In this document: positions 1,693 to 64,000 of the stretch, piece after piece
How the letters are laid out: each line of letters begins with the position of its first letter
Position numbering within the stretch: position 1 is the stretch's first letter
NCBI GenBank assembly: GCA_964036195.1
Contig: OZ038456.1
Coordinates: forward strand, 22,111,792-22,175,791
From: Sphaerolaimus hirsutus
Lineage: Eukaryota > Nematoda > Chromadorea > Monhysterida > Sphaerolaimidae
Direction of reading: 5' to 3'
Length of the DNA: 64,000 nt
Notes under the pieces: generated by a model
The model's database searches: none
The model's input: only the letters and a program-made list of their open reading frames with translations
Told to the model about the DNA's origin: nothing
Translations under genes and position numbers: made by a program

Positions 1693-2571
1693 CAGAGTTG
1701 TGCAAATACTGGTATTTTTAGAAAACGTAAACGTAAACGTAAATACCTTTTCCAAATCAAAAGTATAAATACTAAAACGTAAGGTATTTTTAAAATACCA
1801 AGGAATACGTAAAAAAAACGTAAACGTAAATTTTTTGAACACCGTATTTGCCATTGTGCTTTGGAAAATACCATTTTTTCACCTTTAGATGGGTCAATCG
1901 CTCCATCTGCGCCACTCTCTGTTGAAAGTGTGGCCAAATCCAACTACGCTGGTGAGTCTCGGGGAGTCCCAGATCCTGTGAAATGCCTTGTAAAATGTCA
2001 AATGGCATGCAAAGTGTCTAAAGTCATGCAAAATGCCCTGGAAGGTGGCAAATCTTTGCCATTTTGCTGGTCATTTTACATGAGTTTTGACACTTGCATG
2101 AAATTTTACATTTTACAGGGCATCCTACAGAGTCTGGGATTGGCACTTGAGCTTGCACTCGCCGTGCCAGTTTCAAAACGTGGCTACTCACAGTTGTTGC
2201 AAGTGCGTCGTCGGAATTCATCACAATAAAAATTTATAAAGGTTCCACAAAAAAAACAAAAAGTTTTCTGTGTTCAGCATTGAATTTTTTCATACACCGC
2301 TGTTTTGTATGTATACGTGTTACGTTTATGCAAAAGCATAAGAATATTGTTGGCCGCAGGTGCGGCCCATTTGGACATGTGAACATGTGAACAAGTGTTG
2401 AACGCATGTGATCGCAAGTGTTTTTACGTTTTCCATAGTACCTGGGTATTGTGGTCAGGAAAACGTAACAAAACGTAATGGTATTTTTGGAAAACGTAAA
2501 CGTAAACATAAGTATAAATACCCGAATAACCGGGTATTTCGGGTAAACGTAAATACGTTTTTCCAACTCTG
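1693..2571. mobile_element. hAT-like element carrying a gene fragment (Pack-type)
   Basis: Inverted ends are CAGAGTTGTGCAAATAC and ...TTTTTCCAACTCTG. The 8-bp duplication ttattttt lies at 1685-1692 and 2572-2579. GTAAACGTAAACG repeats fill the zones just inside both ends. The middle (about 1880-2235) is unlike the other GTAAACG elements in the window and looks like a spliced gene 3' end. Confidence 0.75.
1861..2229 (+). pseudogene. Captured 3' gene fragment inside a hAT-like element
   Basis: An open stretch to 1951 ends at a GTGAGT donor. A following segment starts at 2171 after 'cgccgtgccag', keeps the frame (phase 1) and ends at TAA 2227-2229, overlapping an AATAAA-like signal. The putative intron 1952-2170 is itself an inverted-repeat element ('gtcccagatcctgtg' against 'cagagtctgggat'). 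The joined peptide ends in a basic, Ser/Gln-rich tail with 'YSQLLQVRRRNSSQ'. No family is recognised. It may be a transduplicated gene end; chance splice-like sequence is the alternative. Confidence 0.35.
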
Positions 2572-3391: not shown

Positions 3392-5995
3392 TTAGCCTGG
3401 ATTCCACTGGGTGCTGGAGCTAAGCCTTGCTTTGTGCTTGCGGCGCATGCAGGGCTCGCCCCGAGGGTTGGTCACCAGTTGACCATCGGATTTTCCAGGG
3501 TTCACCAACATGAACTCGGCATGTGGTGAAACGCATTTGGCAGAATTGCGAAAACATTTGGTGGCAGACTTTTTGCGCGGGGGCCTGCCGTAGACATTGC
3601 TGCCCTTGGTGCGTGGCAGTGTAGCGGGCTTCGACGAGTGCGATTTCCGAATGCCAGTAATTGGCGCCAATTCACGATGTGACAGTTTAGTGACCACCGA
3701 TTGTGTTAGCATTTCCCCCATAATCGGAGACCGGCAGGCGCGAATCGATTCCCCCATGGCCCTGGGCATGAAATTGGCTTCGAGTCGCTGGAGCTCAGAA
3801 ATAGCTGTGCGATTCATTTTTAGCGTGCCATAGAGTGCCTCGTGGCCAAACAAAAGCGGGCTCGAAGTGCGCGGGAAGTGTGGTTTCCTTTTAACCACAG
3901 CCCAGATGTCTGCCGATTGCTGTTGTCCACCAGGTGTGGTATGCAGCAAATGCATTTTGTAGAGCGCCAGGTGATGCCCCGGAATCGGCTTGCCGGCAGT
4001 CCCCAAAGCTGAATCAGGGTATGACCGGTACTTTGCCTTCTCCATGCTGGCATTGCACTGTGCGCGTTCCCAAACATCCTCGAGCAGGTGCTCCTCAATG
4101 ATGATCCCCTCCTCACAGCCACTATCAAGTGTGCCTGTGAGCATGCAGCCCATGAAATCCACTTGAGCCAGCGGACGATCACAATGGGGGTGTCGCACGC
4201 TTGCTGGGCTCATGGGGCAACCCATCTGCTTGTGAGCTGCATAGCCGCTAGGGAACCACGTTTCAAAATCATCGGGCTCAGGCTCGGAATCAGATGGCGG
4301 ATTAGAAACATTTTTAGTCATTTTAGTAGATGGATTACCACTAGGTTCGGTGTCAGATTCAGGGGCACTATAGATGTGCTCATCCACTTTCAGATTGAGT
4401 TTGCCACACTCAATGCACATATTTTTCTGAGCATCGTGCTCAGTCTTGCCGGCCTTACGCAGGAAGTCTCGGGCTCGTTCCGCCCGATCCAGTCGATAGG
4501 CAGGAGAATCAGGATTCAAATAGCATTTTGCCGGCTCATGCGGCATGGGTGCACGATGCATGAAATAGGTGCACCATGGACCCTGATGTGTCGTCGGGTC
4601 AAATTTTGACTGCCTTTCCCAGCCATCGTTTTGACTGCCAGATCGACCCGAGGCATTCATGGATGCAGCCACAGCTGGTGGGTCATTGGACCATCCAGCG
4701 TTTCCACTGTTCGACGGATTCGGTGCACGATTAGCATTACGCTGCTCATTTTGTTCGGCCCGATAATGCAGATTTTCCTCACGCGTGATGTCGAGGCGTC
4801 CAACAACATCCGCCAGTTCGATCTGACCATCTTGCCATTTCTCACGCCACGGATACCAAAGAGACATTGGCAGCATTCCTCCAATCTCGAGGAACAATTT
4901 ATCGCCAATCATTTTCTCGCGCTGTGAGTCGTCAATCTGCTCACTAATATAGTGGAATGTGCTGCACAATCTGCTGTACAGGGTGGCCACAGAATCAGTT
5001 GATTTAGCAGAAATTCGGTACCACTCGGCGACGGAATGCGCCTTGCGGTCCACCCGAAAAACACGAGCCAACTTGTCGAGAACATATAGCACAGTGTTGC
5101 GCTTGTCCAGGCGAATAGAAATGTAGTGCGCCTGCGCGCTTCCCTTCAAACATTGCTGGAAAACATTGGTCCAGAACAAATGTTGATATGGTGGGGGAAC
5201 GTTCAGAGCCTGTAGCGCCACATTGTGAAGCCAAAATTTAAAGGGCCCCGACGGCGCGCTCGAATCCCCGTTGAATGGTGTTTGCTTGCTAGCGACGGTG
5301 GCTACATGGCCGCCACTCATGTGATCACTGCAGGAAATTTGTGCCAGCGCATCCACAAGCGACGGAAAGCCATCGGCTGGGACCATGACGTATTGGTCGA
5401 CGTAGGCGGCAATTTGACCGATCAAACCGCCAGGCGATGATGACACAGCCTGCAACCTAGCTTCGGTTGAATCAAGTGGCTGGTTAGTAGATGTAGTAGA
5501 GGGGGTCCTCAATGGACAATGATTGTTTGCGCCAGGTGCCGGTATCAATTGCGAACCCGCGGGCACATTTTGGACCGGTGCCGGATGTGCCGGCACCGCT
5601 TGTGAAGCCAATTGTTGGGCGATTGCAGCCGGGAGTTGTTGGATAGCCGACAAAAGATCGACCATTGTCAGTGCTGCAGCCGGCTGGGCAGCGGCAACAC
5701 CTTGAGGCAGCGTGGGGTCGTCCCCAATGCCTCTGGGCGGTACTTGATCTTCGAGGTCAAGCACCAATTCCAATGTGGTATTTGGGTCAGTGAAATACAG
5801 GTCCATGCACCGCCATACATGCCGAACAAGTGGCACAGTTCCCAGGCGGGGCGGATCACTAATTGTAGGCCAATCATCGCCATCAATTTGAAACTGCAAG
5901 AGCACATTTAGCAAATGCAGCAATTTCTGCCGTTCGGTGCGCTCGACCCATAATTCGACAACTGGCTCCAGTTCCGCTCGCGTATATTGCGACAT
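3392..5995 (-). CDS. gag: Retrotransposon Gag-like polyprotein with protease-like motif
   Basis: A single 867-residue reading frame. It would package element RNA and mature the particle. Residues 1-230 are acidic then Pro/Ala/Gln-rich. Residues about 240-430 form a helical capsid-like region (FKFWLHNVALQALN near the start, 'TLYSRLCSTFHYISEQID' in the middle) resembling Gag domains of LTR elements. Cys/His clusters follow (WCTYFMH, then CIECGK). At about residue 620 'GTLDSGCEEG' resembles the D-S-G active site of retropepsins, with Cys where Thr or Ala is usual. The tail is basic. The ATG at 5995 follows the leader and is the first long-frame start. Whether the protease is active is unknown; Gag identity is inferred from layout and motif, not from a search. 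Confidence 0.75.
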   Translation of the reverse strand: MSQYTRAELEPVVELWVERTERQKLLHLLNVLLQFQIDGDDWPTISDPPRLGTVPLVRHVWRCMDLYFTDPNTTLELVLDLEDQVPPRGIGDDPTLPQGVAAAQPAAALTMVDLLSAIQQLPAAIAQQLASQAVPAHPAPVQNVPAGSQLIPAPGANNHCPLRTPSTTSTNQPLDSTEARLQAVSSSPGGLIGQIAAYVDQYVMVPADGFPSLVDALAQISCSDHMSGGHVATVASKQTPFNGDSSAPSGPFKFWLHNVALQALNVPPPYQHLFWTNVFQQCLKGSAQAHYISIRLDKRNTVLYVLDKLARVFRVDRKAHSVAEWYRISAKSTDSVATLYSRLCSTFHYISEQIDDSQREKMIGDKLFLEIGGMLPMSLWYPWREKWQDGQIELADVVGRLDITREENLHYRAEQNEQRNANRAPNPSNSGNAGWSNDPPAVAASMNASGRSGSQNDGWERQSKFDPTTHQGPWCTYFMHRAPMPHEPAKCYLNPDSPAYRLDRAERARDFLRKAGKTEHDAQKNMCIECGKLNLKVDEHIYSAPESDTEPSGNPSTKMTKNVSNPPSDSEPEPDDFETWFPSGYAAHKQMGCPMSPASVRHPHCDRPLAQVDFMGCMLTGTLDSGCEEGIIIEEHLLEDVWERAQCNASMEKAKYRSYPDSALGTAGKPIPGHHLALYKMHLLHTTPGGQQQSADIWAVVKRKPHFPRTSSPLLFGHEALYGTLKMNRTAISELQRLEANFMPRAMGESIRACRSPIMGEMLTQSVVTKLSHRELAPITGIRKSHSSKPATLPRTKGSNVYGRPPRKKSATKCFRNSAKCVSPHAEFMLVNPGKSDGQLVTNPRGEPCMRRKHKARLSSSTQWNPG

Positions 5996-6245
5996 GACGG
6001 AAAATGTGTAAGGTCACTAAGGCTGCAGGAGCACAATTCAGTGCAATGATAGTGCAGGAGTGTCCAAACACAACTGGAACAGCACTAAGTTAATAATGCA
6101 TGCAATTGCAGCCAAAAATTGTGCAGAACAGGTGCACAATTGGCCTAGCGTAACAGGGCACTTGAGTAAAAAACACGTGGATGACTGTGACCGCACCGAA
6201 ATTTCACACGGCGCAGCACCTAGGTGCAAAAATGGCGCCCAGTAA

Positions 6246-9759: not shown

Positions 9760-10140
9760 CTGCATTTTGGCGCCATCTCCGCGCCATTGAAAACAATGGG
9801 GCCATGCGCCAAATTGGTGCCAGCAAAAATGGCACCAAACGCCAAGGGCGCCATTCGAAATAATGGCACCAGGTGCGAGATGACGCCACAGAAAAGGGCG
9901 CCAAGTGCCAATGGTGCCATGGCGCTATACGAAATAATGGTGCCAGGTGCCAGATAGCACCCACAAAAAAGAGCGCCAAGTGCCAATGGCGACATGGCGC
10001 AGGGACATGGCGCAGGGGCCGTTTGATGCCATTTTAGGGCACCAGCGCCATGGCGCCATTCTGTCACTACCTGTGAGTAAAAAAAACCCTTACATTTATG
10101 TTTACTTTTGAAAAATTTCAGTACTTTTAACAACTCTGTG
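9760..10140. repeat. GGCGCC array followed by a GTAAACG-type end
   Basis: 9765-10065 is an array of diverged GGCGCC units. 10075-10138 is the terminal 'cagtacttttaacaactctg' of a GTAAACG element. Both look truncated. Confidence 0.5.
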
Positions 10141-26289: not shown

Positions 26290-27070
26290 CCGCGGTGTGC
26301 ACTGAATTAGCAGCACGCTGGTGACAAAAAAATGTGTGAATATCTTTACATTATTGTTTTTACAAAAATTGGTTGCGCATAACATCCCCCCACCCAATGA
26401 CTTGACGCCCGAACGTTATGCAAGTTTAAAAAAAAGTTGCCGACAGGTGCCTTATATGGGGGGGCTTTTACGGAGAAATACGGTACATTGCATTCATCAC
26501 CATTCATGTTTCATAATTCATTTAAAGGGGGGGGGTTTATTGATTCATAGTGCCCATTTTGAGGGCTGTATTTGAGGGGGAGGGGGGTAATTCGAGGAAA
26601 TACGGTCAAACTTGAATTTAAAAAAGGTGCCTTGCAACAAATAAATCTGAAATTTGTCATTGGTTCATCATAATGTGTTTTAGCATTTCAAGGAAATACG
26701 GTAGTGCGGAAACATCAAGTGAAAACATACAAGAGCATGCATGGATGCCACCCTTATGTGATTCATGCATTTCTAATCACTCCAAACTTGACATTGCAAA
26801 CAATTATCAATGCATGCGAGTGCTCGGTGCAGTTTTGGATAATCCTGAAACCGTGAAATATACCTGCAGCTAATTTTTACATTTTGTATTTTACTTGTTT
26901 TTTTTAAACAAATATACCAATCACCCCCTCTGCAAAATTTCAGAGGTAAACTGTAATGAACCAGGAACAAAACGCCTGGCGCTGGCCCCTTGCAGTTGCA
27001 GCTAGCGCCATAGTTCTTTCGGCGCTTGGCGCTGGCGCCATGGCGCCCTGCGCCAAATTCCTGGCGTTTT
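26290..27070. repeat. Decayed TA-element ends and a GGCGCC patch
   Basis: Several 'gaaatacggt' ends at about 26485, 26605 and 26700 show overlapping broken TA elements. 26960-27065 is a GGCGCC fragment. Nothing coding is convincing. Confidence 0.45.
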
Positions 27071-27320: not shown

Positions 27321-30300
27321 ATGTATGGCCCACAGCCTATGCCATCAACAGGTGCCAATCACAGACCCTGTAAAATGCCTTGTAAAATGTAAAATGTCAA
27401 GCAAAGTGTCCAAAGTCATGTAAAATGCCCAAGAAAATTGACAAGCATATACATGACCTTTGACATTTTACAGGGAATTTTACAGGGTCTGTGACTGCCC
27501 CCAGGAGCGGTGGCTGGAAGTGCTTGGGACAAAAAGTTGAGAAGTGCACTTCACGAACGCATTCAGGAGGCTATCAGGGAGTATTACCCGCCGGTATGTT
27601 GAGGTGATAAGATGTTGATTTTTGATGTTGTATTTCTGTACCGTATATCCTCGCACAAGACCGCAGGGGAGTGATTAGATCGTCATAAGTTCTGGAGGGG
27701 GAGTTATTCAAGAGGGGGTGTTATTCAAGGGGGAAGGGGGTTATTCCACTTTATTCATTGTATGAATGCATTCCATCAACTCATGTAATTATTGAGGTTA
27801 TTGAAGGGGGATGTTATTCAAGGATGGTCTTATCCAAGGATATACGGTATGTGTGTTTTGTGTGTTTTGTAGTGTCATTACAAGTTTACAACAAGTTTTC
27901 TATTTATGTTGAACCAGAATCAACGGATGACCATTTTTGGCTATAAAGCGGGAATTAGAGCTCAGCGTCGATTCGACGTGAAATGATGACGTGAAATGTC
28001 GTCGTTAAATTAATTACACGAGTGTGGATCATGCTACGGGTCTACAATTTTCTAAGGATAATATATGAATCAATACCTTAGTCGTGTCCAATACTGAGTG
28101 TTATCAGCCACAACTAGAGCGAATTGAAAAATTCAATTTTTATCATTTCACGTCATCATCATTTCACGTCACAGTGTCAGGGAACAACTTGACATTTCAC
28201 GTCAAACTGCTGCTTGCAATAGCAATTAATTTCACGACGTCATTTCACGTCATCATTTCACGTCGAATCGACGCTGAGCTCTAATGCTACGATTACAGCT
28301 CGGGCGTAAAATTCCAGCGTAAAATTCCATCGCAAAATTGATTACATGAAAGTGGATGATGATACAGGTCTGCAATTTTTCATGGAGAATATGTTTATCA
28401 ATACCTTCATTGTGTCCGAGAGTCATCATCCACATTCACTGCCTTTTGATTGTGGAAATTCAAAAATTTCTATTTTACGCTGCAATTTTACGCCAGCTGA
28501 AGAAAAGTCAATTCTACGCTATGCCATTGCATGCAATCACCTGGCGTAGAATTGACTTTTCTTCAGCTGGCGTAAAATTGCAGCGTAAAATCGAAATTTT
28601 TGAATTTTCAGAATCAAATAGAAGTGACCGTGGACGATGACCCTTGGTCACAATGATGGTATTGATAAACATATTGTCCATGAAAAATTGCAGACCTGTA
28701 TCATCATCCACTTTCATGTAATCAATTTTGCGATGGAATTTTACGCTGGAATTTTACGCCCGAGCTGTAATCGCTCCATAATTCCGGCCTAATACACATT
28801 ATACTCCAGTGACTTTACACCCTGCACGCGTGGTTCATGCTGGAACGGTGCCAACCATATATAACGTAATCGATTTTGAAAATTTTTTGAAAAATTCATT
28901 CCTGTTATAACATTATACATCAGTGTAATCCCAACGATGCATTTCTCATCTTTCTACAAGCGTCGCATGCTTTAATTATCATTGGCACGGTTCCAACATG
29001 AGACATAAATCTGTCCTAGTGCAGAGTATCAGATCCGCCGACTATACTAGCGTTATTGTGTCTGCACCTTCGATTCGGTTTCACATTATTCTACACTTTC
29101 ACAACAAAAACATTTCGCAGGCGCCAAAATTTGGCCTGAAAAATGAGTGGCTTATCACCTGGGTCGATTGGGTGTACTGGACACTGAGACGAGCCCAGTA
29201 CAAGCTCACGTTTGATATCGATGGTTTGTGTTAAACGGATTTGATTTGGGCATTTGAACACACCCCCCACCCCCCGCCCGTGTCAGCTGTGTGTGGAAAA
29301 CGCATGGAAAATAAACAAACCCTGGGTTGGGATTTTAAAATTTATTATTTATACAATACAATCTCGGAAAGCCTCTAGATAAAGAATATGTAATTAAACT
29401 ACGTGTTTCCTCCAAATACCCCCCAACGATCTTGATTTTTTAAATTTTGGGGGTATCGATTTTTTAATAAGAAATATAAAATATCGTTATCGAAAATTTT
29501 GAAAAAATATCGAACATCGACATCGAATATCGATTATATTGTCGAATATCGAGAGCCCATGGCCTATCCATATCGAATATCGCGTCTCAGTACAATATAT
29601 CGAATATCGATATCGAAAAGTCATATCATCCGAACCCTAAAATCAAACACTTTTAAATTTGCACAGTGGACGATGCGGAAGACCAAGAGCGCATAATGCA
29701 GTTCGAACGTCACAAACCGATCAGCTTGCGTCGTTTGGTTGAACAGAGCGGCTTCGATGAACAATGGCTCAAATATTTCTATGCAGTTTTTAAGCAGGTG
29801 CCAATTGTGTATAGTGTATAAGTGACAGGAAAAGTGCCAAGTGATAAGTGCTAAGTCAACTAGTAAGTGCCCTGTAGGATGTTAAGTGTAATGTCAAGTA
29901 AAATGTCATGCAAGGTTGCCAAATGATATGCAAAATATCAAGGGCAAGTTCAGCTATAAATTTTTTTTTTTGTTTTAATTGACATTTACTTGATGTTTGA
30001 CACTTTACATTGCACTTTAAAGGGTGTATGACTGCCCAAACTTGTCATTCATGAATTGCCACTTTACTCATACCTTCCAAATTAACTTACCACTTACTAC
30101 TTATCATGTCACTTGATCACTTACGGAACTTGACCAAGGAATGTCCATCATCCGTTATGAATCTGGAGGATTTTTCGCGGCTGATGGGCACTTATTTTCC
30201 GCACTCAATTTCGGACGATTATGCTGAAAGATTGTTCACGTTCTTCGATCAGGACGGAAATGAACAGGTGACGTTTGAGGTGAATTTAGTTATGATGTTT

Positions 30301-33300
30301 CATATTTTGGCGTTCCACACCCAGCGCCAATGGCGCCAGAGCACAACGGCTACAAGCGCCAGGCGTCTTGATCCTGGCGCCATGCAAAAAAGTGCCAAGC
30401 GCCAAAAGCGCCATGGCGCCTTTCGTCGGCATGGTACCACGCGCCAACAGCGCCACAGAAAAATGGTGTCAAGCCAAGCGCCAAGAGTAACATGGCGCCT
30501 TTTCTGTTGGCGCTAGCACCATGGCGCCATTCCATTACTTCCCCCCCCCCCCCCCAGGAACTAGTGATGCGTTTGTCGCAGTTGCGCAGCCCCGAGGTTG
30601 GCACCAGGGCGCAGTTGTTCTATTCGCTGGTGGCTGGGCGCCGGGTCGGCGCCGAGATTGATCAGGGACCCGTTTCTCACGTTGACAAGTCACTTGACAA
30701 GCAAGTGACAAGTCACATTGACTTGGATTTAACACCCCATCAAGACAAGGGTGGATGGGGTGTTGAATTGAAACGCCTTGGTAGTGGCGCCTGGCGCCAA
30801 AACGGATCCCATGGCGATTTTGGCGTCGTTAAAAAAGTCAATTCTTTGGCGCCAAAGTTTGGACATTTCTTCATCACTATGCGGCCGATTTCAAGTGAAA
30901 CATGATATACAGGGGTGGGCATTTTCAGTTACCACTGGAAAAACGCGATAGCTTGAGCTACGGTTGAGCTATCACAGTGAAATTTTAACACAATAGAGTA
31001 GACTCCATAGGACACCTATTCTGAAGTTTGCAACCCAAACGGCCACATTTTGGGTGAGTTGTGGAACACACAGTTTTTACTGTAATTTTGTGACTTGACC
31101 CCCTTATCTCGGGACTGGGGGACTGTTCGAGAGAAAAAAAAGAATTTGGTCGTAGCCCCGACCCCAAACCCCAGCATACTCAAAGGGCATCAAAATCGGC
31201 CAATGTACGACAGAATGGGACGACACCAAAGACCGGTGACCCCCCCCCTCAAATGCCACCCTCGATTTATCCTGTGGGTGACGCCAATACACAAAATTAC
31301 ACTAAAAACTGTGTGTTCCACAACTCACCCAAAATGTGGCCGTTTGAACTTCGGAAAAGTTGTCCTATGGAGTCTACTCTGTTGTGTTAAAATTTCACTG
31401 TGATAGCTCAACCGTAGCTCAAGCTGTCGCGTTTTTCCAGCGGTAACTGAAAATGACCAGCCCTGTATTTGCAGGAAGATAAACCATTTAAAAATGGAAT
31501 TTCAAGTTGTAAGCCGGTTTATTTGTTGCTCAATTGACACTTTTCTTGTCACTTGACAAAGTGCGCAACGGGTTCCAGAACCCACCAAATATCGACTTTG
31601 CTACAATGAGTGACTACGTGGCTTGCCTGTACGAATTGGCGGGTTACAAGGTTACTGGGGAAGTCACACATTTTCACTTTTATGGTCTAAATATTGTCGG
31701 TTCTAAAATTCTGAAATATTATTTTATCAGGCATTTTTGAGGAAGGAATATTTTTGGGGGCATTATTCAAAGGGAATTACTTCTTTTCTTTTCTAGGAAA
31801 CTTTCTAGCATGTTTCTATCAACTCATTTCAAGAAATATGCTTTATTAACTAAATAAGAAGGCATTTATGCTCAAATTGCACACAACAAATCTCTCATAT
31901 GCCTACAGAGGGCAATTATTTGAGAGGGGGGGGGCAATGTTGACCTAACTCCTTAAACAGTGGGGGATTTTTCCAGGGGGGAGATTATTCAAGGTAAGAT
32001 CATTCATCCTAATACAGTAGTATACTTCAAGCTGACCTTTCAAACCTCCATCTACCCCCCAACCCAACCCCCCCCCCCCCCTCAAACATTTCCCCCCAAC
32101 CCCCCAGGTGCTAACCCCCCTGGACGTGGAATCGTGCGCCATGCAAGCGGACTTGCCGCACATCAGATCGGAACTGCGCAAGACCCTGCACAGGGTGCTG
32201 CTGAGCACCAGCGCGTCCGACCCCCTGGTGCTAGGTTCTGTTTGGATGTAGGGGGGTTGGGTGACTGGTGGGAGAGTGAGAGTGTGATATTGAAAATGAG
32301 TGAAATTGGGTGCTGGGTATGCTGTGTGCCAGCTGGTGCCAGTAAAGTGCGCTGTAAAGTGTCAAGTGTCATGCAATGTGTCAAATGTCATGCAAAGTGT
32401 CAAAAGTACAGTAATTCAGTAGCTGAAAGCTTTCTTACAATCGTTCGCTTTTAGCCTCTCTTCAAATCGCTTAAGGCCCCTTTGCAATATAATTCATTAA
32501 AACATTATATTTTTCTTGACATTTTACATGGCACTTTGCCCCAGGTTTCCATGTGAATTCAGATTTAAGGTGCACATGCAGCAATGTCAACAAGAAATTA
32601 ATATTGCTATCTGCATTTGAAAATCGTTTCTCACCCAATCAACTAGAAACTGAATGGAAACCAGTCAGCCCAGTTGACATCCGATGTCATTGTCAACTGG
32701 TATGTGTAGGGCTGAATTTCAGACGCTCACTCTTCCGTCGGGCGGCTTACTTGCGCCCTACATTCAAATTGAACTTGGCACCTGGCCAAAGCGGCCATTG
32801 AGTACGCTGGAGGCAGGGCAGTCACCTATTGCATGGTGGAACAGAAAACCTTGGCTGTGTGGAACGTTGGTCGGGCTTGAATTATCAATATTTGGAACGG
32901 GGCCAGTCCCGCGGCCTGTAAATGTCATGTAAATTCTATGGTAATGTGAAAATATAAATACTGGGAATTTTATGACATCTTACAGGGTACATTTTATACG
33001 CTTATACGGTTTTGACGCTGGCACCGCCCGGAATGTAAAAGTAAAAAAGCACCACGGCGCTTAGCGCTTTTAACATCACTATTGGCCCCACACACACTAG
33101 TTGACCTCGACACCAAATGTCAACTGGTTCCGATCCCAATTCAAAGATTGCGTTCGAACGTCGTTCGTCGGCTCGTCAGCAAGCTTTGAATCGAGATCGG
33201 AACCAGTTGACATTCGGTGTCGATGTCAACTAGTGTGTATAGCGCCAATGGCAACAAAACAACTACACTCAACACAATTCCACCCAACGTCACTCAGAGA

Positions 33301-33847
33301 ATCATGAACGTGCGTTGTCCGCGACGCAGCACGATTACTTCTCGACATTCGACCGGCTCGCCAAAGTCGACCAGGTGCCAATTTCTCCAATGGACAAGTG
33401 TGACAAGTTAAGTGGTAAGTGGAGGTGAAGTGGTAAGTGGTGTTAAAAGTTGCGAGTGATAGAGAAGGTGGTATGAGTGTTAGTAACTGACAATCAAATA
33501 TGTTTATTAAAACAATGCAAGGTTTTCTCATAACATGAATTTACTTACCTCACCATAAATAAAAGTTAAAAAATTATTCGGACCGTAGGCTTACCTATGC
33601 CGCTATTTCGTCAGCACACTTGCGTTGTTTTCGCGGTCAGTTTGAGATTTCGTGGACAGTTTTTACACCGACACGGACTGAAGGTTCAGACAGAATCCTG
33701 CTAGTTATTTTACTCAAAGCCATTTAAAATACTTAACAAATCACTTACCACTTTACTTGTCACTTGTCCACTTGAGAAATTGGCCCCAGACCGGTCAACC
33801 AGCTGACCTACGCTGACATTGTCACCATAAGCATGTGTCCCGTTTGA
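27321..33847 (+). CDS. EF-hand protein with neuronal-calcium-sensor/KChIP-like core
   Basis: In-phase exons: 27321-27351 (ATG), 27505-27593, 29121-29223, 29667-29797, 30139-30279, then 30558 to about 30650. After an N-terminal 'SAWDKKLRSALHERIQEA' segment and a Trp-rich stretch comes 'KYFYAVFKQECPSSVMNLED', matching the Cys-Pro first EF-hand of NCS/KChIP proteins. 'FDQDGNEQVTFEE' has Ca ligands at loop positions 1, 3, 5, 7, 9 and 12. Such proteins bind calcium and regulate membrane partners. Later exons 31562-31650, 32108-32227, 32723-32917, 33298-33374 and 33790-33847 (stop) form a second in-phase chain, but the join from the 30558 exon to 31562 is not in phase, so the back half may belong to another transcript. 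The exact family is uncertain; the EF-hand core is firm. Confidence 0.65.
27352..27504 (+). mobile_element. Introner-like element: a 153-bp inverted repeat that is an entire intron
   Basis: Starts at the splice donor with gtgccaatcacagaccctg and ends at the acceptor with cagggtctgtgactgccc then ccag. The two ends are inverted copies. Splicing it out joins 'MYGPQPMPST' in frame to 'GAVAGSAWDKK'. Related sequence recurs at 1966-2145 and 63820-64000. Confidence 0.7.
27641..27847. mobile_element. TA-flanked CCGTATATCC element in an intron
   Basis: TA-CCGTATATCCTCGCACAAG...CAAGGATATACGG-TA, inside the intron after 27593. Confidence 0.7.
27956..28284. mobile_element. Fold-back element with GACGTGAAATG arms
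   Basis: TTAGAGCTCAGCGTCGATTC at the left and its exact reverse complement at the right end. The arms carry repeated GACGTGAAATG. 329 bp, in an intron. Confidence 0.8.
28286..28775. mobile_element. Fold-back element with GCGTAAAATTCCA arms
   Basis: GCTACGATTACAGCTCGGGC at the left and its near-complement at the right. The centre near 28530 is also self-complementary. A close copy with intact ends lies at 57519-58012. Arm frames such as 'MKVDDDTGLQFFM' are not genes. Confidence 0.8.
28790..29050. repeat. Miniature inverted repeat, CACGCGTGGTTCA type
   Basis: 'ggaacggtgccaacc' faces 'ggcacggttccaac'. Same family as 365-1530 and 49960-50200. Confidence 0.55.
29798..30138 (+). other. Intron starting GTGCCAATT with AAGTG palindromic arms
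   Basis: The intron between the phased exons 29667-29797 and 30139-30279 begins gtgccaattgtg. It has 'aagtgataagtgctaag' near the start and 'cttaccacttactacttatc' near the end, so it resembles the element-introns at 27352 and 33375 but is decayed. Confidence 0.45.
30310..30545. repeat. GGCGCC element remnant in an intron
   Basis: GGCGCC-type units ending 'ggcgccattccattac' just before the C-run acceptor tract of the exon at 30558. A left end is not clear. Confidence 0.5.
30910..31465. mobile_element. Inverted-repeat element with 190-bp arms
   Basis: CAGGGGTGGGCATTTTCAG at the left against CTGAAAATGACCAGCCCTG at the right. Arms share 'gatagcttgagctacgg' and 'ccacattttgggtgagttg' in opposed order. 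In an intron of the EF-hand gene. Its middle resembles the core of the element at 10290-12175. Confidence 0.75.
33088..33240. mobile_element. Hairpin miniature element, CACTAGTTGAC type
   Basis: CACTAGTTGACCTCGACACC faces GGTGTCGATGTCAACTAGTG. Decayed relatives lie near 32640-32720, 35010-35215, 41540-41735 and 62445-62640. Confidence 0.7.
33375..33789 (+). mobile_element. Introner-like element: a 415-bp inverted repeat that is an entire intron
   Basis: Starts at the donor with gtgccaatttctccaatgg and ends at the acceptor with gagaaattggccccag. Further in, 'gttaagtggtaagtgg' faces 'cacttaccactttac'. Both splice sites lie in the inverted ends. Removal joins exon 33298-33374 in frame to the last exon 33790-33847. 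Confidence 0.7.
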
Positions 33848-35359: not shown

Positions 35360-35555
35360 GGCACCTGGTGCCAGTTCCGCAAAATGAGAAGTGAAATGGC
35401 AAAGGCGAAGTGAAATGGCAAGCGGAGAAATTACTTTTTTTTGCTTCGCATTTGCCTATTCGCATTTGCCAATTCACTTGCCATTTCACTTCGCCTTTGC
35501 GCTTTTACTTCGCCTTTGCCACTTCTCACTTTTCATTTTGCGGAACTGGCCCCTG
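35360..35555. mobile_element. Palindromic miniature element, TTCCGCAAAATGAGAAGTG type
   Basis: 'ccagttccgcaaaatgag' faces 'cattttgcggaactgg', with AAGTGAAATGGC repeats inside. Relative at 56895-57220. Confidence 0.65.
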
Positions 35556-45000: not shown

Positions 45001-48000
45001 TTCGAGACCGAGAAAAAATTCTTGAAAAGTGATATCGTTTGTAGGGTTGGCCGATGTTTTTTTAAACGTTTTTTATTTAAAAAAACGTTGTTTTTTTTTA
45101 AAACACGACGTCCGAAATGTTTTTTTTTTAAAAAAAACATCGACCGAAATTTTTAGTACTAAGCACTAGGTATTTTGCAAAATTTTTGCGCGCAAGCGCG
45201 CAATTTCAGACACAAATTGACATTGGTGGTTGTTTTAATTGGTTGTGGCATTTTTAGTATCAAAGTATCCATTTCTATGTGCTAGCATGGGTTAATAAGC
45301 CGTCATATGTTGCTGTAGTATATAATATTGAGGTAATGTGCTTCCATGTACCTCCACAGTGTGTAACTTCACTCCCAAAGTAACAACCTCGTTTTATAAC
45401 CTTGTTTGATCACTATTCCGTGCCAAACTTTACCTGAAGTCACGAACATTTGACTATAAGGCGATATACGAACGATATGTCGACGAAAAATGGATATTTT
45501 TGACACAAATCACCACTTATAATGCTATCCCATGGCTCCACAGACATTATATGGTCATATATAACATCACAGAGTATTGCCACTGTCTGATATACCTATA
45601 TATGTTGACACAAGGTCATATCTGGGAGCTTTAAAAAAAAAACGTTTTTTATTTTTTTAAAAACATCGAGTTGAAAAAAAACGTTTTTTTTCCAACCCTA
45701 ATCGTTTGAACCCTGTTTTTCAATACTGCAAGTGCCTTACTAGGGTGTCAAATTTCCGTTTCCGTTTTCCGTTTCCGCATTTCCGCAGGAAAATTTTTTA
45801 CCTTTCCGTTTTCCGTTTTCTGGCAGCTGAACATTTTTTACCTTTCCGTTTTCCGTTTTCCAGCAGCCGAAAATTTTTTACCTTTCCGTTTTCCGGCAGC
45901 TGAAATTTTTTTACCTTTCCGTTTCCGTTTTTCCGGCCCATTTTTCCGTTTTCCGGCTGAAAAATTTTTACCTTTCCGTTTCCGTTTTACCAGGCCATTT
46001 TTCCATTTTCTGGCTCGATTTTCAGTTTTCTGGCTTTTTTCCATTGTTTTTCCAATCTGTATTTATCTTCAATTGGCTCATCCCATTGTGTTGTTTTTGT
46101 CTCTTGGAGCAGCATTGACAACTGGGATTTCAGGGTCAGTGAAACAGGTGCTGTGAACCCAATTGGGTCATATGCTGACACCAATAATTTATTCAAGTTT
46201 TGTCTGGTTGGTGTTGTGATGCTGTCAATTTGCAATTTTGGTGTTGATATTGCCAGCATGTCAGTTTGGTGATTTTATTTCATGCCCATTACTGCGACAA
46301 TTTTATTCACCTTTGGACTCCAGTCATTTTCTGCTATTTCATTCATGACTGATCTGGAGTTTGACAGCCATTCCCTCATGTTCATAGAACATTGGTTAAA
46401 TAAAGCTTTGACTTTGTAATATAGTTCTAAAGCTTCAACTTCATTTGTGACACTCATGATGAAGTTATCGACGTAAATGTTGTTTATTATCATCGCCAAC
46501 TGGTTTTGTTCCCCTTCATTTGCTTCATATTCATTCATGTTGTTTATTGTCACATTCAAATGGTATTTTATGACTGCTCCCAAAATTGCTGGGCTGCAGA
46601 CAAGTCCAAACAGTATGTGTTTAAAACGAAGTACTATTAAGTTATTTTCAGTTACTGGTTTTGAGGCATCTTTCAGCCAGAAAAATCATGTGTAGTCTCT
46701 AGCTTGGTCATGCAATCCTATTTGCAAAAATGCCTTTTCAATATCAGCAATTAATGCTAGATTGCCTGCCCTGAACCTCAGGAGTAGGCCCAGTGCTAAT
46801 GGTGTTGTAATTGGTCCTCTAAAAAAGCACTTGTTGAAACTGGGCTTACCTGCCGACCCATCGTACATGATTCTGCATGATTTCAATTTGCCCGGCATGA
46901 TTACTGGCTGGTGTGGCAGGTAATGAATCCCCTTGTTGTCTGTTTTGTCATCACAGATCTCAATTATTCCCTTTTCTAGTTGGTTGTCCAAAACTTTCCG
47001 GTATTGTTCAAATAAGTTTGGATCTTTGTTGAATCTTCTTAACAGTGATTTAAACTGCACCAAGGCTTCTGCTTTTCCTGTGGGCAGGTCACTGATACTC
47101 TCTTTATATGGCCGATCAATATAGTATTGTTTGTTGCTGTCATTGAATTTTATGCTATTTATTATCATCTCCTCTGCAATGTCGTCATCAATTGCATAGG
47201 GGTCATCAGTGATTCCCACTGCTTCTAGACTGTGAAATTGTCGTAGTGTTTCATTTCCTATGGCCACTATGGCTACTTTTTGATGATTTTTTGTTGGTTC
47301 AGTTAAGCTTGAACTACAAGTGAAGTTACAGGCATGATCCATAGTTGCAGAATGTACAGCTACCACAATCAAAGCCAAACAGGCAAACCTGCATGCAGGT
47401 TTTCCTTCTGCAAATTTGTCTATTACCGTGCTAATTTCACTTTATTTTTTTCCGTTTCCGTGAAAATTTTGCTTTCCGTTTTCTGTTTTCCGGCATTTCA
47501 TTTTACCGTTTTCCGTTTTTCGGCCGACAATTTTTTTTTACCTTTCCGGTTTCCGTTTTCCGCTGAGTGAAATTTTTTTACCTTTCCGTTTTCCGGCAGA
47601 AATTTTTTTGACACCCTATGCCTTACTAAATCAGTCGCAGCAAAATTTAAGGTTTTCTTTATCAACAAAAAAACAAACAATTTCGATGACACGAGCATTT
47701 CGACCTACAAAACTACAAAATCAATACCAAAATGCAAATCTACATCACATCCCGCTACATTTTTATGGCACACGATTAGTGATGGAAAAAGCGCCAGGAC
47801 TTTCGCGCCAAGCGCAAAACGCGCCATGGCGCCTTTTCCGAACCCCAGCGCAAGTGGCCTCAGAGCAAAATGGAGCCAAGCACCATGGCGCTTTTTGCTT
47901 TGGCGCAGCGCCGTGTGTTTTGTTCATGGCGCCGCGCAAAAATAGCGACAAGCGCCATGGCGCTTTTCATTGGTGTGGCGCCATACGCCAATGGCAACAT

Positions 48001-53929: not shown

Positions 53930-54570
53930 TAAGTGTGGTGTCCGCCGCGTATACTGATGGCAATCTCTTATTGTTATTAAAATCAGCACCCAATCTGAAC
54001 AATAATCCCGACTGAATGCAAAGTTAATCCCATGGCATTCAACCTTTGATCCCTTCCGCCGCCGACCCCGACTTGAGTTCATCATTAAGGCGGGGTCAAT
54101 GCCTAAAAACTTCCCAAGCGCAAGCGGGCAGCGTGCCAAGCCGGACGGAAAGTAGAATCTACCGATAGTAAGTCCATCAGTCAGATCGCAGGGCAAGAAT
54201 TCTTACCTTATGTTGATGAAATTGTACCACGGCGTTGGCGTTTTTTGCAGGCGCCACCCCCCCCCCCACCCCGGAACGTCACTAATTCGGCTGAATTTCC
54301 GTGTCACTTTATTCATAAAATTACGGTAGCACCCTTCGTAGAGTGCGCATTCCGATCAGTAAATCATATCACGGCGACGCAAAAGGATCTAAATGTCACG
54401 GGGGTCGCTAATTCAGGGGCCTATCCCTCTTTTCCCTTGCGCCTTTCCGTTTTGTCAGTTTTCTCCGTGGGTTGCGTCAGCGGCAAGCCTTCTAGCTCGT
54501 CCAAAACCTGGAGCCAGATTGAATTGACCCGATAATTGTTTTTTTGAGGGTAACTGGTTTGCATTTGGTG
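53930..54570. other. Region with two unplaced minus-strand open segments
   Basis: 53924-54196 reads 'GRFYFPSGLARCPLALGKFL' and 54421-54564 reads 'WLQVLDELEGLPLTQPTEKT' on the minus strand. Neither could be tied to splice partners or a family. Confidence 0.2.
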
Positions 54571-54580
54571 TCTGGAATTA

Positions 54581-55348
54581 CCCTATTTCCTCGAAATACT
54601 CCCATCCCCCAAATTGAGCGTACCGTATTTCTCCATGTAAACCGCCCGGGTAGGGGTAGGAAAGAGGGGGGCTGGGGGGTTACCCTTTTGGGAAAAAGTT
54701 TGGGCTACTATCCCCTAACCCCCCCCCAATCGGACAGCTATCTACCTATCTGGAGCGATTTTTGAGAAACACGACCCCAATTTTCGCTCAAAATCATTAT
54801 TTTTCATAACTTTATAGATTTTCACCTCCAAAATCACTAGTTCATGCATCTAACTGCCTATTTTCAGCAATTTTTAGTGGTATATGTGCTTATATACCCA
54901 TTTTTCACCTTTTTTAGCGATTTTTCTCCCTTTTGTTCCTTCTATGTGCCTATATATTGACCCCCCCCCCCAAAAAAAAAAGTTTTTACCTAGCTTCTAT
55001 CCCTCTGGAGGAGTGATTTGCTATCTATCCAACCCCCTGGAGGGTTGAAATCTAGAAGACCCCTGCGCCTGGGTGTTATACAAAACTTGCTGTGTAACGC
55101 CCCGGGCATTGTGCATGGGGGGGGGGGCGGTTTACATCTGGAAATACGATAAACAGCAACAAAAACGGCCATGCATAAGAGTATAGACACATACCTAAGT
55201 ATTTATGTACACGGTATAAACCCTGTTCTAACATAACAGGGCCATTGTTTTTAACGTGTGTTATGCATTGCGCGGATCACAAACCGCAGCTTTTGTCATT
55301 GAAGTTCTCTTTACACTCAAATGGGGAGGGTATTTCGAGGAAATACGG
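54581..55348. mobile_element. TA-flanked element containing a second TA-flanked element
   Basis: Outer TA-CCCTATTTCCTCGAAATAC...CGAGGAAATACGG-TA. Inner 54623-55149 is TA-CCGTATTTCTCCATG...GGAAATACGA-TA and carries GATAGATAG-family remnants. Confidence 0.6.
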
Positions 55349-55979
55349 TATGATAGGCCGCGTATAATACGATACGCACGGCTGCCCGACAAAAACTTAT
55401 CGGGTTAATTAAATCTGGTCCCTGTTGCGCCGCGTCATCGCCTCTGGGATTTGTCACAGTTTGTGACTGCGGAGTACTGCCATCTGCGATAAATGACTTA
55501 TTAAATACCCTATTTATAGGGTGATTTTTTTAATTTCGACTTTGGATTTTCCAAATTTTTGGAATGCTTTCTGGATTTTTCGACTTTTGCACTTTTTTTG
55601 GTTTTCTGGTCAATTTTCAACACGGCTTTATTGTTTTCCGGCCTCAAAGTCGTTGCCGCAGACGCGCTTTTATTTGTTTTCCCGCAAAAATCGATCCATG
55701 TGAAATTCAACCTTTCAGCTTTGAGTTTAAATTTCAAAAATTTTGAATTCCAATTTCAAACCCAAGTCATTGTCAACTCGAACCGGAGCGAACGCTATCG
55801 GCATTCTTGTTTTGCCCCGCAGGGGGACCCCCGGCCAAATGGGCACCCCCCTCCGCCGGCACGCTTCCATCTTGCAATTGAGCGCCGCCGTACGTTTTTG
55901 CCATCTTTTTTTTCTTGCCGCATCCAAATTGCCACAGCAAAGCGCCCTGGGATGGGGTCATATTCATGGGTGATTACTA

Positions 55980-61800: not shown

Positions 61801-63456
61801 CGATCCCGAGAAACTCCCAAGTCCGGGATCCCGATTCCGGATCAATTAGTGGAAATTATCAAAAGTGAAAAAATGACATTTTTGCATGTAAAAATGTGAA
61901 CGCAAACCCCCAGCGTTCATTTTATGCCACTTTTCTGGCATCCAACAGTGTTTTGAGACCTTTATGAACAACTGTGGATGCCAGAACATTGGCCAAAAGC
62001 TCTATCCCAATACCCCAATCCCGATCCCGAAAAAGTGCCAATCCCGATCCCGATCGCGTGACCCCAATCCCGGCCAACCCCGATCCCGATCCCGAAATCT
62101 CAAAAAACCAATCCCGATCCCGATCCCGATCCTGAAAAGTCAATCCCGTTTGAACCCTAGCTAGGGGTCGGAAAAGCGCCATGGCGCTTGGCACCAAAGT
62201 TCTGGCGCTTTTCACATCACTAGCCCAACCCAACCCACCAAATAATCGTTGCTCTGGTGCTGGTGCGTCTGGTGGCCGTGCAGCACGGCGGTGGCCAAAT
62301 TCGGCGCCAATGCCTTGTTCAATTTTCCCGCGCTGTGCAGCATGTCTTCCAGGGATTCGATGTAGTCGATCGCGTTGCGCAGGATTTCTACCTGGGTACG
62401 GGTTTGAGATTTTGTAGGGAGGTTGAGTTTTTGGCAGTGTGCCCACTAGTTTATTGGCGGTAAACTAAAAGTTTGGTCAACTCATAAATCAACTTTGAAT
62501 GGCATTTGAGTTCACTGGAATTAGGTGTTTGTCAACTACAGTTGATGGAGAGTAGAAATAATCCATTCCAGTAAACACAAATGCGTTCAAGGCCGATTAT
62601 TACGCCTACTAAATTATTAATATTCCATTGGTAAACTAGAATGTGCAGCGATTTTTTTACACACAAGGTATTTGTCAAATTTCCTGTCAATTAATTTCAA
62701 ATTCACTCACAATTATAACCCAAAAATGCACCAATGTCAACGACTTGACAAACCTTGGGCAATCTCTGATTCGGGTTGGCGTGGGTTCTCCGTTTCAAAG
62801 TTTCAAATGCTTCATTCACTTTTCTCAAGCGGCGTCGTTCGCGCATTGTCGCCGCCTTGCGCCGGTCCATCTGTGATTGCTGAAAAAATGGAGCGAGAAT
62901 TTTTGTTTTCATATTTATCACTGCCATTCCATGGCCATGGCGCCATTCAAAATAATGGCGCTGGGCGCCAGATGACGCCAGAGAAAAGGGCTCCAAGCGT
63001 GTGTCGCAGGCCCAAATAAGCATGTGAAGAAATATCATGAAAAATGTTAGATGAACAGTTAAAAACTAACGAAATTTTGACATTTTAGATGAATTTTTAC
63101 ACTTCGCACAACATTTTACATTTACATGAAATTTTACAGTGTCTGATTCTTTACAGGGTTCTACATGTAAACTGCAAAGTACCCACATAAGATAAATTAT
63201 ACTCAATAAAATATCACTGGGCACTTTACATTGACTCAAACCTGAATCAAAACTCGAGACACCAAAATCAATCCCAAAATCGATCCCAAAATGGGTGTCC
63301 CAACCCCCAATAACCCCCCCCCCCCTTTACCCACCGACACAGTTTTCTTCTTGCACGCTTTACACGCCCAAAGGAGACATCTGCGCGGCCCGTGGTGCCC
63401 GTCATGCCCGGCTAACCCTGCGCCCGGTGCTAAGACGTGAGGCACGTGACAGTCGC
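58837..63456 (-). CDS. Myogenic regulatory factor (MyoD/Myf5 family bHLH), seven exons found
   Basis: A muscle-determining transcription factor that binds E-boxes with an E-protein. Exons: 63335-63456, 62754-62870, 62239-62391, 60763-60967, 59959-60208, 59165-59487, 58837-58892; all joins keep phase, about 407 residues. In order: '[12 protein letters not shown]' (Cys/His-rich and basic), '[20 protein letters not shown]' with the muscle-specific Ala-Thr, '[19 protein letters not shown]', '[18 protein letters not shown]' (helix 2), a Gln/Ser-rich middle, a Gly/Arg-rich run '[14 protein letters not shown]', and '[14 protein letters not shown]', matching MyoD helix III. The C-terminus is '[10 protein letters not shown]'. 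The N-terminus is open: an in-frame ATG at 63580 could start it, but the pyrimidine-rich run before 63456 looks like an intron end. bHLH identity is certain. Confidence 0.95.
61441..61549. mobile_element. Very short hAT-like element, 109 bp
   Basis: Ends TAGCGATGGAATAGCGCC and ...GCCATTCCATCACTA. Perfect duplication cgccagtg (61433-61440 and 61550-61557). Inserted in a GGCGCC array (61330-61430) in an intron of the myogenic factor gene. Confidence 0.85.
61604..62222. mobile_element. GGCGCC hAT-like element split by a CCCGAT element
   Basis: TAGTGATGTAAAAGCGCC at the left, GCGCTTTTCACATCACTA at the right. Flanks do not match. The right end lies only 16 bp inside the intron donor at 62238. Confidence 0.6.
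61702..62159. mobile_element. hAT-like element, CCCGAT subfamily
   Basis: Ends TAGGTTTCAAACGGGAT and ATCCCGTTTGAACCCTA. Perfect duplication gctagggg (61694-61701 and 62160-62167). Confidence 0.9.
62925..63260. repeat. GGCGCC fragment and inverted-repeat remnant in an intron
   Basis: 62930-63005 is a GGCGCC fragment; 63090-63250 has 'acatgaaattttacagtg' and 'tttacagggttctacatg' blocks of the introner-related family. Both lie in the intron between the two bHLH-encoding exons. Confidence 0.5.
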
Positions 63457-63825
63457 CTGTAGAGGGGGTAATGATTTGGATACGGGAGTGGATTTGGATA
63501 TGAAGGGGTGGTGGAGGGATATGTGGCGTGAGAATTGGAGAGAATTGGACAAGTGCCAAGGATGGTGGGTTTTCGTTCATTATTAATTAATTAAAGTCTG
63601 ACTTATGTTGATGCACGGAAACTTTGGCATTCACTCGATGAAAACAAATGAATTGAATATCACTGCGAAAAAACTTATACGCCCGAATGTCAAATGACAA
63701 CTCAGTTTTTCGTGAAAGAACCCTACATTAAATTATCAGAGACATCACAGTTCATAGCAATTCCAACAAACAGTCAATCAAATCAAATTAATCAATCAAT
63801 TAACCCCCCCAAAATCCCTCAGGTG

Positions 63826-64000
63826 CCACTCCCAGACCCCATAAAATGCCCTGTAAAATGTCAAATCTCATGCAAAGTGTCAAAAGTCATGTAAATGCCC
63901 TGGAAAATGACATGTGCGTTTGTAATTGTCCAATACGTTTTCCATGACTTTAGGTACTTTGCATGTCATTTGACATCTCACAGGCCATTTTACAGGCTCT
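63826..64000. repeat. Introner-related inverted repeat cut by the window end
   Basis: Begins 'aggtgccactcccagacccc', continues 'aaaatgccctgtaaaatgtc', and the right side has started ('ggccattttacaggctct') when the window ends. Same ends as 27352-27504. Confidence 0.55.

What the first reader, a model, noticed from the sequence alone, without database searches (positions are those of the whole stretch)
27321..33847. Whole introns that are inverted-repeat elements supplying their own GT and AG (introner-like)
Introns 27352-27504 and 33375-33789 start at the donor with GTGCCAAT and end in the inverted copy of the same terminal sequence plus the acceptor AG. Removing each restores an open, in-phase frame. 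A third intron (29798-30138) also starts GTGCCAATT, and the putative intron 1952-2170 and the repeat at 63826 share the internal 'cccagaccctgtaaaatgcc'-type ends. This fits transposons that create introns on insertion, as reported for introners in several eukaryotes.
Basis: partly seen in the sequence, partly recalled or inferred. Interest (0 to 1): 0.85.

Follow-up and report, generated by a model that had tools for sequence, protein, structure and literature searches.

The report
Jumping DNA that becomes introns
Short mobile DNA hairpins in this animal genome land inside genes and appear to be cut out of the messenger RNA as introns, and many seem to use an end signal that normal introns do not use, which would show new introns being made in bulk.

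Summary
Introns 27352-27504 and 33375-33789 are complete copies of two fold-back (MITE) families with many copies in the 348-Mb host genome. The donor GT is the first two bases of the left terminal repeat (GTGCC...; the right repeat has GGG instead). The acceptor AG is not the element's: it lies in the duplicated 3-bp target, CWG. CWG targets and GGG ends match the published NuwaI (PIF/Harbinger-related) transposons; no mobilising transposase was found. Removing an element plus one target copy restores conserved proteins. The surprise is that CTG-target copies sit in conserved exons in the same way: CNOT9 (found at one place in the genome), OSCP1, a trypsin, a permease, an E1 dehydrogenase, a GPCR and a HECW-like gene. 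Exact removal there means GT...CTG introns (3' splice site TG). For the HECW copy no canonical in-frame alternative was found. In two families the acceptor-side target copy is more often CAG than the donor-side copy, as if CTG acceptors work but improve. Introner-like: strongly supported. GT-TG splicing: likely, untested without RNA. Against de novo gain for two window introns: they lie at KChIP positions that I recall as shared with vertebrates.

The parts
27352..27501 (+). Family-1 element = intron body; donor GT is its first two bases. TSD copies CAG at 27349-27351 and 27502-27504
   Evidence: genome copies
27321..27351 (+). putative first coding exon (31 nt, ATG...ACAG); open frame only, no homology support
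27505..27593 (+). putative exon, in frame with 27321-27351 after removal of the element
29667..29797 (+). KChIP/NCS-like EF-hand gene exon ending ...FKQ (131 nt)
29798..30135 (+). degenerate family-2-like element filling the intron; TSD-like CAG 29795-29797 and AAG 30136-30138
   Evidence: removal gives an ungapped match to KChIP4 across the junction
30139..30279 (+). KChIP exon ECPSS...QVTFE (141 nt)
30558..30665 (+). KChIP exon ELVMRL...AEIDQ (108 nt)
30666..31575 (+). 910-nt CAG-flanked element (GGACCCG/GAACCCG repeats) filling the intron; exact excision would be GG-AG
31579..31650 (+). continuation exon NPPNIDFATMSDYVACLYELAGYK (3' end approximate)
32108..32227 (+). exon VLTPLDVESC...STSASDPL ending CTG
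32228..32781 (+). CTG-flanked element (GTGCTAGG/GTGCCAAG repeats) starting at an exon end; exact removal would be GT-TG
33375..33786 (+). Family-2 element = intron body; TSD CAG 33372-33374 and 33787-33789
   Evidence: genome copies
35368..35552 (+). third-family element GTGCCAGTTCCGC/GGGCCAGTTCCGC, CTG TSD; no coding context seen
63823..64000 (+). Family-1 copy after CAG, cut by the window end
1961..2146 (-). degenerate Family-1 copy, inverted, inside putative intron 1952-2170; not end-to-end

Best explanation
These are introners: non-autonomous hairpin transposons (MITEs) of a CWG-target, Harbinger-related (NuwaI-like) kind. Shown from DNA: insertion duplicates CAG or CTG; the element's left end starts GTG and its right end, read inward, GGG; the copies shown to interrupt a conserved domain have the GTG end upstream on the coding strand; removing the element plus one target copy leaves conserved codons in frame. 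Inferred: the host splices it out, with 5' site CWG|GT from the terminal repeat and 3' site at the end of the second target copy. In CAG targets that is a normal GT-AG intron. In CTG targets it is a GT-TG intron, and the T can later mutate to A. The transcript folds into one long hairpin that brings the two ends together and buries the internal AG, which may be why the ends are used. My sub-estimates: introner-like origin 0.9; exact GT-TG removal of the exonic CTG copies 0.6; NuwaI-type mobilisation 0.7.
For: Copies: 3182 first-look candidates for family 1 (40 scored), 207 for family 2 (40 scored). Exact end patterns: CAG|GT 1218, CTG|GT 1067, CTG|GG 946, CAG|GG 645, reversed-pattern control 0 in each. 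TSD: pairing the listed C1 ends up to about 31.2 Mb gave 37 GT/GG elements with equal target triplets (21 CAG, 16 CTG), 2 with unequal, 1 long-range mismatch that joins two neighbouring elements, and 2 GT/GT pairs; 75 of 93 distinct ends in L001-L050 follow CAG or CTG, second base T 43, G 47, other 3. Coding: Pfam domains run through the excision point for CAG copies L063 (Oscp1) and L004 (Neur_chan_LBD), and for CTG copies L097 (Rcd1/CNOT9, 4e-64), L101, L092, L095, L094, L088 (Oscp1) and family-2 L026 (HECW1_helix, 1.2e-15). All 9 have the GT end upstream on the coding strand; 16 antisense ORFs gave 0 hits (one each, 5). CNOT9 was found at one place in the genome, split at the element. L026 has no in-frame GT/GC-AG or AT-AC alternative in the range scanned. 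Acceptor-side targets lean to CAG more than donor-side: family 1 946:645 against 1218:1067 (p 1.6e-4), family 2 23:7 against 37:33 in the 100 of 158 matches that were listed (p 0.028). GPCR paralogues L092/L093 share the CTG element (156 of 168 aligned bases, 28 gap columns) with near-identical exon flanks (268 of 270 and 145 of 150). Hairpins: z -16.4 for L097, -8.4 for 27352; in the 28 elements folded the last internal ACAG is paired at all four bases in 27 and at three in 1.
Against: No RNA data. All 8 family-1 CTG copies tested (L087, L088, L092-L095, L097, L101) also allow an in-frame GC-AG removal that keeps 21 nt. TG is reported in human genes only as an alternative to a nearby AG, never as the sole 3' site (PMC2374985, passages). 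Donor GTGCCA matches the usual donor consensus poorly (recalled). Sense frames were picked by eye before the antisense check. Domain through the joint: 7 of 16 CTG joints and 2 of 18 CAG joints for which a sense ORF was submitted; 4 further CAG joints have a domain beside the joint. Length of the joined open frame did not separate sense from antisense: medians 118 and 109 aa for 13 CAG copies, 110 and 108 for 15 CTG copies. No transposase with matching ends was found: the 6 PF13359 loci read have other ends. Two window element-introns (29798, 30666) lie at KChIP positions that I recall as old (exon lengths 141 = 70+71 and 108). Exact removal of 30666-31578 would be GG-AG.
Confidence: 0.78

Rival explanations
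1. CAG copies are introners with canonical GT-AG ends, but CTG copies are removed by ordinary GC-AG splicing from GT|GCCAGT to the internal TTTTACAG, adding 7 residues to the protein.
For: In-frame and stop-free in all 8 family-1 CTG copies tested; uses a standard AG.
Against: Poor GC donor context (recalled); would insert 7 residues into CNOT9, where the domain aligns 120 residues to 120 profile positions without them; the internal AG lies in the hairpin stem; not found for family-2 L026, whose last AG would leave 61 nt.
Confidence: 0.15
2. Exonic CTG copies are unspliced, recent, damaging alleles caught in one assembled haplotype.
For: The assembly gives one sequence per locus and no reads were available; CTG is rarer than CAG at the acceptor side.
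Against: 7 of 16 sampled CTG copies lie in conserved exons, counting L093, the paralogue of L092 that was not itself submitted to Pfam; one CTG element is shared by two GPCR paralogues and has diverged between them; the flanking frames are open.
Confidence: 0.15
3. The elements are cut out of somatic DNA, as ciliate internal eliminated sequences are, leaving one CWG copy.
For: Precise restoration for both CAG and CTG targets; excision at DNA level would not need AG.
Against: All 9 domain-spanning cases have the GT end upstream on the coding strand, which DNA excision would not require; the acceptor-side lean to CAG points to splicing.
Confidence: 0.04
4. Old introns were invaded or replaced by the MITE; the element did not create the intron position.
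For: Introns 29798 and 30666 lie at KChIP positions that I recall as shared with vertebrates; exon lengths 141 and 108 fit.
Against: Elements run from splice site to splice site with target duplications; several cut conserved domains, and OSCP1 and what appears to be one FAT-like cadherin gene each carry two.
Confidence: 0.25

Closest known systems
Introners of Micromonas, Aureococcus, Symbiodinium and others (PMC9860276: abstract and Results and Discussion section read)
   Same: Repeated MITE-like introns with TIRs and TSDs; in some families one splice site comes from the element and the other from the duplicated target
   Different: CWG target; both A and T versions lie in exons, implying a TG 3' site. 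That survey reports rare GC and GA 5' sites and introners in only two animal groups
NuwaI transposons, PHIS/Harbinger superfamily (PMC4482050: section 7 and passages)
   Same: CWG target duplication, TIR usually starting GGG, found only in animals
   Different: Here the elements read are 0.14-0.96 kb hairpins with one TIR changed to GTG; no partner transposase identified
Amoebophrya introner elements (PMC7789003: passages)
   Same: Direct repeats at the borders, inverted repeats folding the intron into a hairpin, non-canonical ends
   Different: Dinoflagellate with highly variable borders; here fixed GT and CWG borders and defined families in an animal
Fritillaria AG/AC and AG/AT introns (PMC13326754: abstract, one results section and passages)
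   Same: Animal with massive non-canonical introns; a triplet (YAY) at both borders resembles a target duplication (my comparison)
   Different: Other border sequences; there the shift is tied to U2AF duplication, which could not be tested here
Human TG 3' splice sites (PMC2374985: passages)
   Same: TG used as a U2-type 3' site
   Different: There only as an alternative near an AG, never as the sole 3' site
Euglenid nonconventional introns (starts of abstracts in the listing only)
   Same: Hairpin joins the intron ends; non-canonical borders
   Different: No conserved borders; different lineage

Membership tests
Introner | Many similar introns whose similarity runs to both splice sites | tested here: met
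   (splice sites inferred from coding frames, not from RNA)
Introner | Insertion lies in coding sequence and removal restores the protein | tested here: met
   9 domain-spanning joints (7 of 16 CTG, 2 of 18 CAG submitted); the other joints gave no domain through the joint
Introner | TIR and TSD of a DNA transposon | tested here: met
   37 equal against 2 unequal TSD pairs on C1
Introner | Removed from mRNA by splicing | not testable with these tools
   no RNA data
Introner | Intron absent at the same position in relatives | not testable with these tools
   no related genome held; two window introns at positions recalled as old
Canonical GT-AG intron | 3' end AG | tested here: not met
   met by CAG copies; not met by CTG copies under exact removal
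NuwaI (PHIS/Harbinger) | CWG target duplication | tested here: met
NuwaI (PHIS/Harbinger) | TIR begins GGG | tested here: inconclusive
   right end GGG, left end GTG
NuwaI (PHIS/Harbinger) | Autonomous element with DDE transposase and Myb/SANT gene and the same TIR | tested here: inconclusive
   PF13359 copies present, but the 6 loci read (one end each) have other ends; most copies unread

The most novel reading that the evidence does not exclude
This animal's spliceosome removes a mass-produced class of introns whose sole 3' splice site is TG: transposon hairpins that bring GT in their terminal repeat and use whichever CWG triplet they land in, so that about half start life as GT-TG introns and drift to GT-AG by a single T-to-A change.
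Probability: 0.55. Interest if true: 0.93.

Novelty: new variant of a known kind. Interest (0 to 1): 0.82.

Why it matters
It would add another animal case of introners (the one large survey read here reports two animal groups), tie intron birth to a transposon kind with a defined 3-bp target, and give a natural series from GT-TG to GT-AG on which the strictness of 3' splice-site choice can be measured. Because the target CAG equals the classical exon-junction consensus (recalled), it also offers a mechanism for intron insertion at 'proto-splice sites' and for re-use of old positions.

Tried and rejected
Rejected: that the acceptor AG belongs to the element (TSD pairing). Rejected for the copies read: that the abundant PF13359 Harbinger copies mobilise the introners; in the 6 loci read the one visible end is of the GGCCCCACGCACAC or TGGCCCCACAC type. 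Considered and dropped: a second acceptor 13 nt downstream of 33789 for the 33375 intron; exact TSD removal also leaves a plausible open frame. Uninformative: joined-ORF length. A small count of unequal TSDs in L001-L050, made by eye, was first entered as 6 CTG..CAG against 1 CAG..CTG; on recount it is 5 distinct (7 with the duplicated locus L050) against 1 (L005), which is not significant, so I do not lean on it. Species: a bryozoan was guessed from genome size; Membranipora (339.4 Mb, 21 scaffolds) and Flustra (956 and 880 Mb) do not fit 348.5 Mb in 762 contigs; species unknown. The two large window ORFs at 3395-6013 and 46689-47441 gave no Pfam hit. A U2AF1 copy-number search did not complete. 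Literature: the search for introner and Harbinger together returned one paper, PMC8476143, seen in the listing only.
Full report
Setting. The window is part of a 348-Mb assembly of 762 contigs. It is from an animal: it holds a myogenic-type bHLH gene and an APC11 RING exon (Pfam HLH and zf-ANAPC11), and the gene under the finding is a Kv-channel-interacting-protein (NCS) EF-hand gene (a composite translation matches KChIP4 with E 1.2e-16). The species is not known.

What the elements are. Family 1 (27352-27501) has 3182 first-look candidates, of which 40 were scored; family 2 (33375-33786) has 207, of which 40 were scored. Typical copies end as GTGCCARTCNCAGACCCTG or GTGCCAATTYC on one side and, read inward, GGGGCARTC or GGGCCAATTYC on the other. 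The recurrent difference is the second base: T on the left, G on the right. Among 93 distinct ends in loci L001-L050, 75 follow CAG or CTG, and the second base is T in 43, G in 47, other in 3. Exact patterns count 1218 CAG|GT, 1067 CTG|GT, 946 CTG|GG and 645 CAG|GG ends, with 0 for the reversed patterns. Pairing the ends listed on contig C1 up to about 31.2 Mb gave 21 GT/GG elements with CAG at both sides, 16 with CTG at both sides, 2 with unequal triplets, 1 further mismatch at 996 bases that joins two neighbouring elements, and 2 GT/GT pairs. This is a 3-bp CWG target-site duplication. CWG targets and GGG ends are what PMC4482050 (section 7 and passages read) gives for NuwaI transposons, a Harbinger-related group found in animals.

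Splice sites. In CAG targets the insertion yields CAG|GTGCC...CCCC CAG|, a canonical intron whose removal restores the target. So GT comes from the terminal repeat and AG from the duplicated target. The acceptor-like pyrimidines come from the right repeat.

Coding test, CAG. The first 30 CAG|GT ends on C1 were fetched (L051-L080); 13 of the 30 had a right end within 3 mismatches and an equal triplet. In all, sense translations of 18 CAG joints were sent to Pfam: 10 (8 from these 30 loci, plus L004 and a second element in L020), 5 (L041, L030, L029, L039, L018) and 3 (L052, L058, L065). In two the domain runs through the joint (L063 Oscp1, L004 Neur_chan_LBD), in four it lies beside it (L056, L077, L079, L080), in twelve there was no hit. 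L079 and L080 are two elements 1.3 kb apart in what appears to be one FAT-like cadherin gene. In the window, removal of 29798-30138 gives an ungapped 109-residue match to KChIP4 through the joint.

Coding test, CTG. This was meant as a control and became the main result. All 16 CTG elements paired on C1 were fetched (L087-L102); 15 passed the automatic end finder and L087 was handled separately. Sense translations of 16 CTG joints were sent to Pfam: 14 of these 16 (not L093 and L099) plus L026 and one element of L041. After removal of the element plus one CTG, domains run through the joint in L097 (Rcd1/CNOT9, 4e-64, 120 residues on 120 positions), L101 (trypsin), L092 (GPCR), L095 (permease), L094 (E1 dehydrogenase), L088 (Oscp1, 32 on 32; L063 is 0.8 kb away) and the family-2 copy L026 (HECW1 helical domain, 47 on 47). 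The other nine gave no hit. L093 is a paralogue of L092 with near-identical exon flanks and the same element at the same site. The CNOT9 segment is found at one place in the genome, split at the element. All 9 domain-spanning joints (L063, L004 and the seven CTG cases) have the GT end upstream on the coding strand; 16 antisense joint ORFs gave no hit (one each, 5). Sense frames were chosen by eye first, which favours sense, and the length of the joined open frame did not separate sense from antisense in either group (medians 118 and 109 aa for 13 CAG, 110 and 108 for 15 CTG).

What that implies. Exact removal of a CTG copy is an intron GT...CTG. I enumerated GT-AG, GC-AG and AT-AC alternatives around 9 CTG copies. 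All 8 family-1 copies allow one common in-frame alternative, GT|GC...ACAG|, that keeps 21 nt; all 8 also allow other in-frame combinations that change or add residues at the joint. For L026 none was found in the range scanned; its last AG would keep 61 nt. PMC2374985 (passages) states that TG 3' sites in human genes occur only as alternatives to a nearby AG.

A population-of-sites test. If the acceptor-side CTG is a working but weaker 3' site, it should drift to CAG while the donor-side copy does not. Family 1: donor-side CTG 1067 of 2285, acceptor-side CTG 645 of 1591 (Fisher p 1.6e-4). Family 2, the 100 of 158 matches that were listed: donor side 33 of 70, acceptor side 7 of 30 (p 0.028). 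Caveats: donor-side and acceptor-side counts come from overlapping but not identical sets of elements; GT ends outnumber GG ends; GT/GT elements dilute the donor side (on C1, 2 such pairs against 37 GT/GG); and a direct by-eye count of unequal TSDs in L001-L050 (5 distinct CTG..CAG against 1 CAG..CTG) is too small to decide.

Structure. The transcripts of the elements fold into one hairpin over the full length (L097 -114.6 kcal/mol, z -16.4; 27352 copy -63.7, z -8.4). In the 28 family-1 elements folded, the last internal ACAG lies in the stem (27 with all four bases paired, 1 with three), while the outermost bases are loosely paired. Hairpins that join intron ends are reported for Amoebophrya introners (PMC7789003, passages) and euglenid introns (abstract starts in the listing). 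That the hairpin aids end choice here is inference.

Against a simple gain story. The KChIP exons 30139-30279 and 30558-30665 are 141 and 108 nt. I recall vertebrate KCNIP exons of 70, 71 and 108 nt, so introns 29798 and 30666, both filled by CWG-flanked elements, would lie at old positions. A literature search found nothing usable. Re-insertion into the CAG left by an intron loss, or replacement, could explain this; I cannot tell. Exact removal of 30666-31578 would be GG-AG, or a GT six bases further in could be used.

Transposase. PF13359 has 163 matches in the genome (150 of 306 candidates scored). Six loci were read, one end each: four of the large group end in GGCCCC(A/G)CGCACAC, two of a second group in TGGCCCCACAC. 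Neither fits the introners. The mobilising enzyme is not identified.

Verdict. Introner-like transposon introns: strongly supported from DNA. A class of GT-TG introns produced by the same elements: the best reading of the CTG copies, at about 0.6, and decided by a few RNA reads.

Noticed in passing
window 62206-63470, minus strand: Myogenic-type bHLH (MyoD/MRF-like) gene; introns appear to lie after about ...CKKKT and after RLPKV, inside what is one exon in vertebrate MyoD (recalled).
   Followed up: partly
window 33081-33249: A fold-back element whose end (ATTGGCCCCACACACACTAG) resembles the ends of the abundant second Harbinger-type family (L081-L084).
   Followed up: partly
L081-L084 and PF13359 rows: More than 100 similar DDE_Tnp_4 copies, most listed with about 4 in-frame TGA inside the match, perhaps an intron read through.
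   Followed up: no
L085:1924-2115 and L086:2112-2303: A family-1-like element (CTG left, CAG right) nested at the same place in two near-identical Harbinger copies.
   Followed up: no
window 30310-30540, 26990-27060, 9800-10000 and elsewhere: Clusters of GGCGCC/GCGCCA palindromic repeats forming spurious open frames.
   Followed up: no
window 54511-55421: 911-nt CTG-flanked element with GAGCCAG/GGACCAG ends; coding context not examined.
   Followed up: no
target sites: Right flanks of CTG insertions often begin GTG, suggesting a wider palindromic target CACCWGGTG.
   Followed up: no
window 30666-31578: CAG-flanked element whose first bases are GG; if removed exactly it would be a GG-AG intron.
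   Followed up: partly
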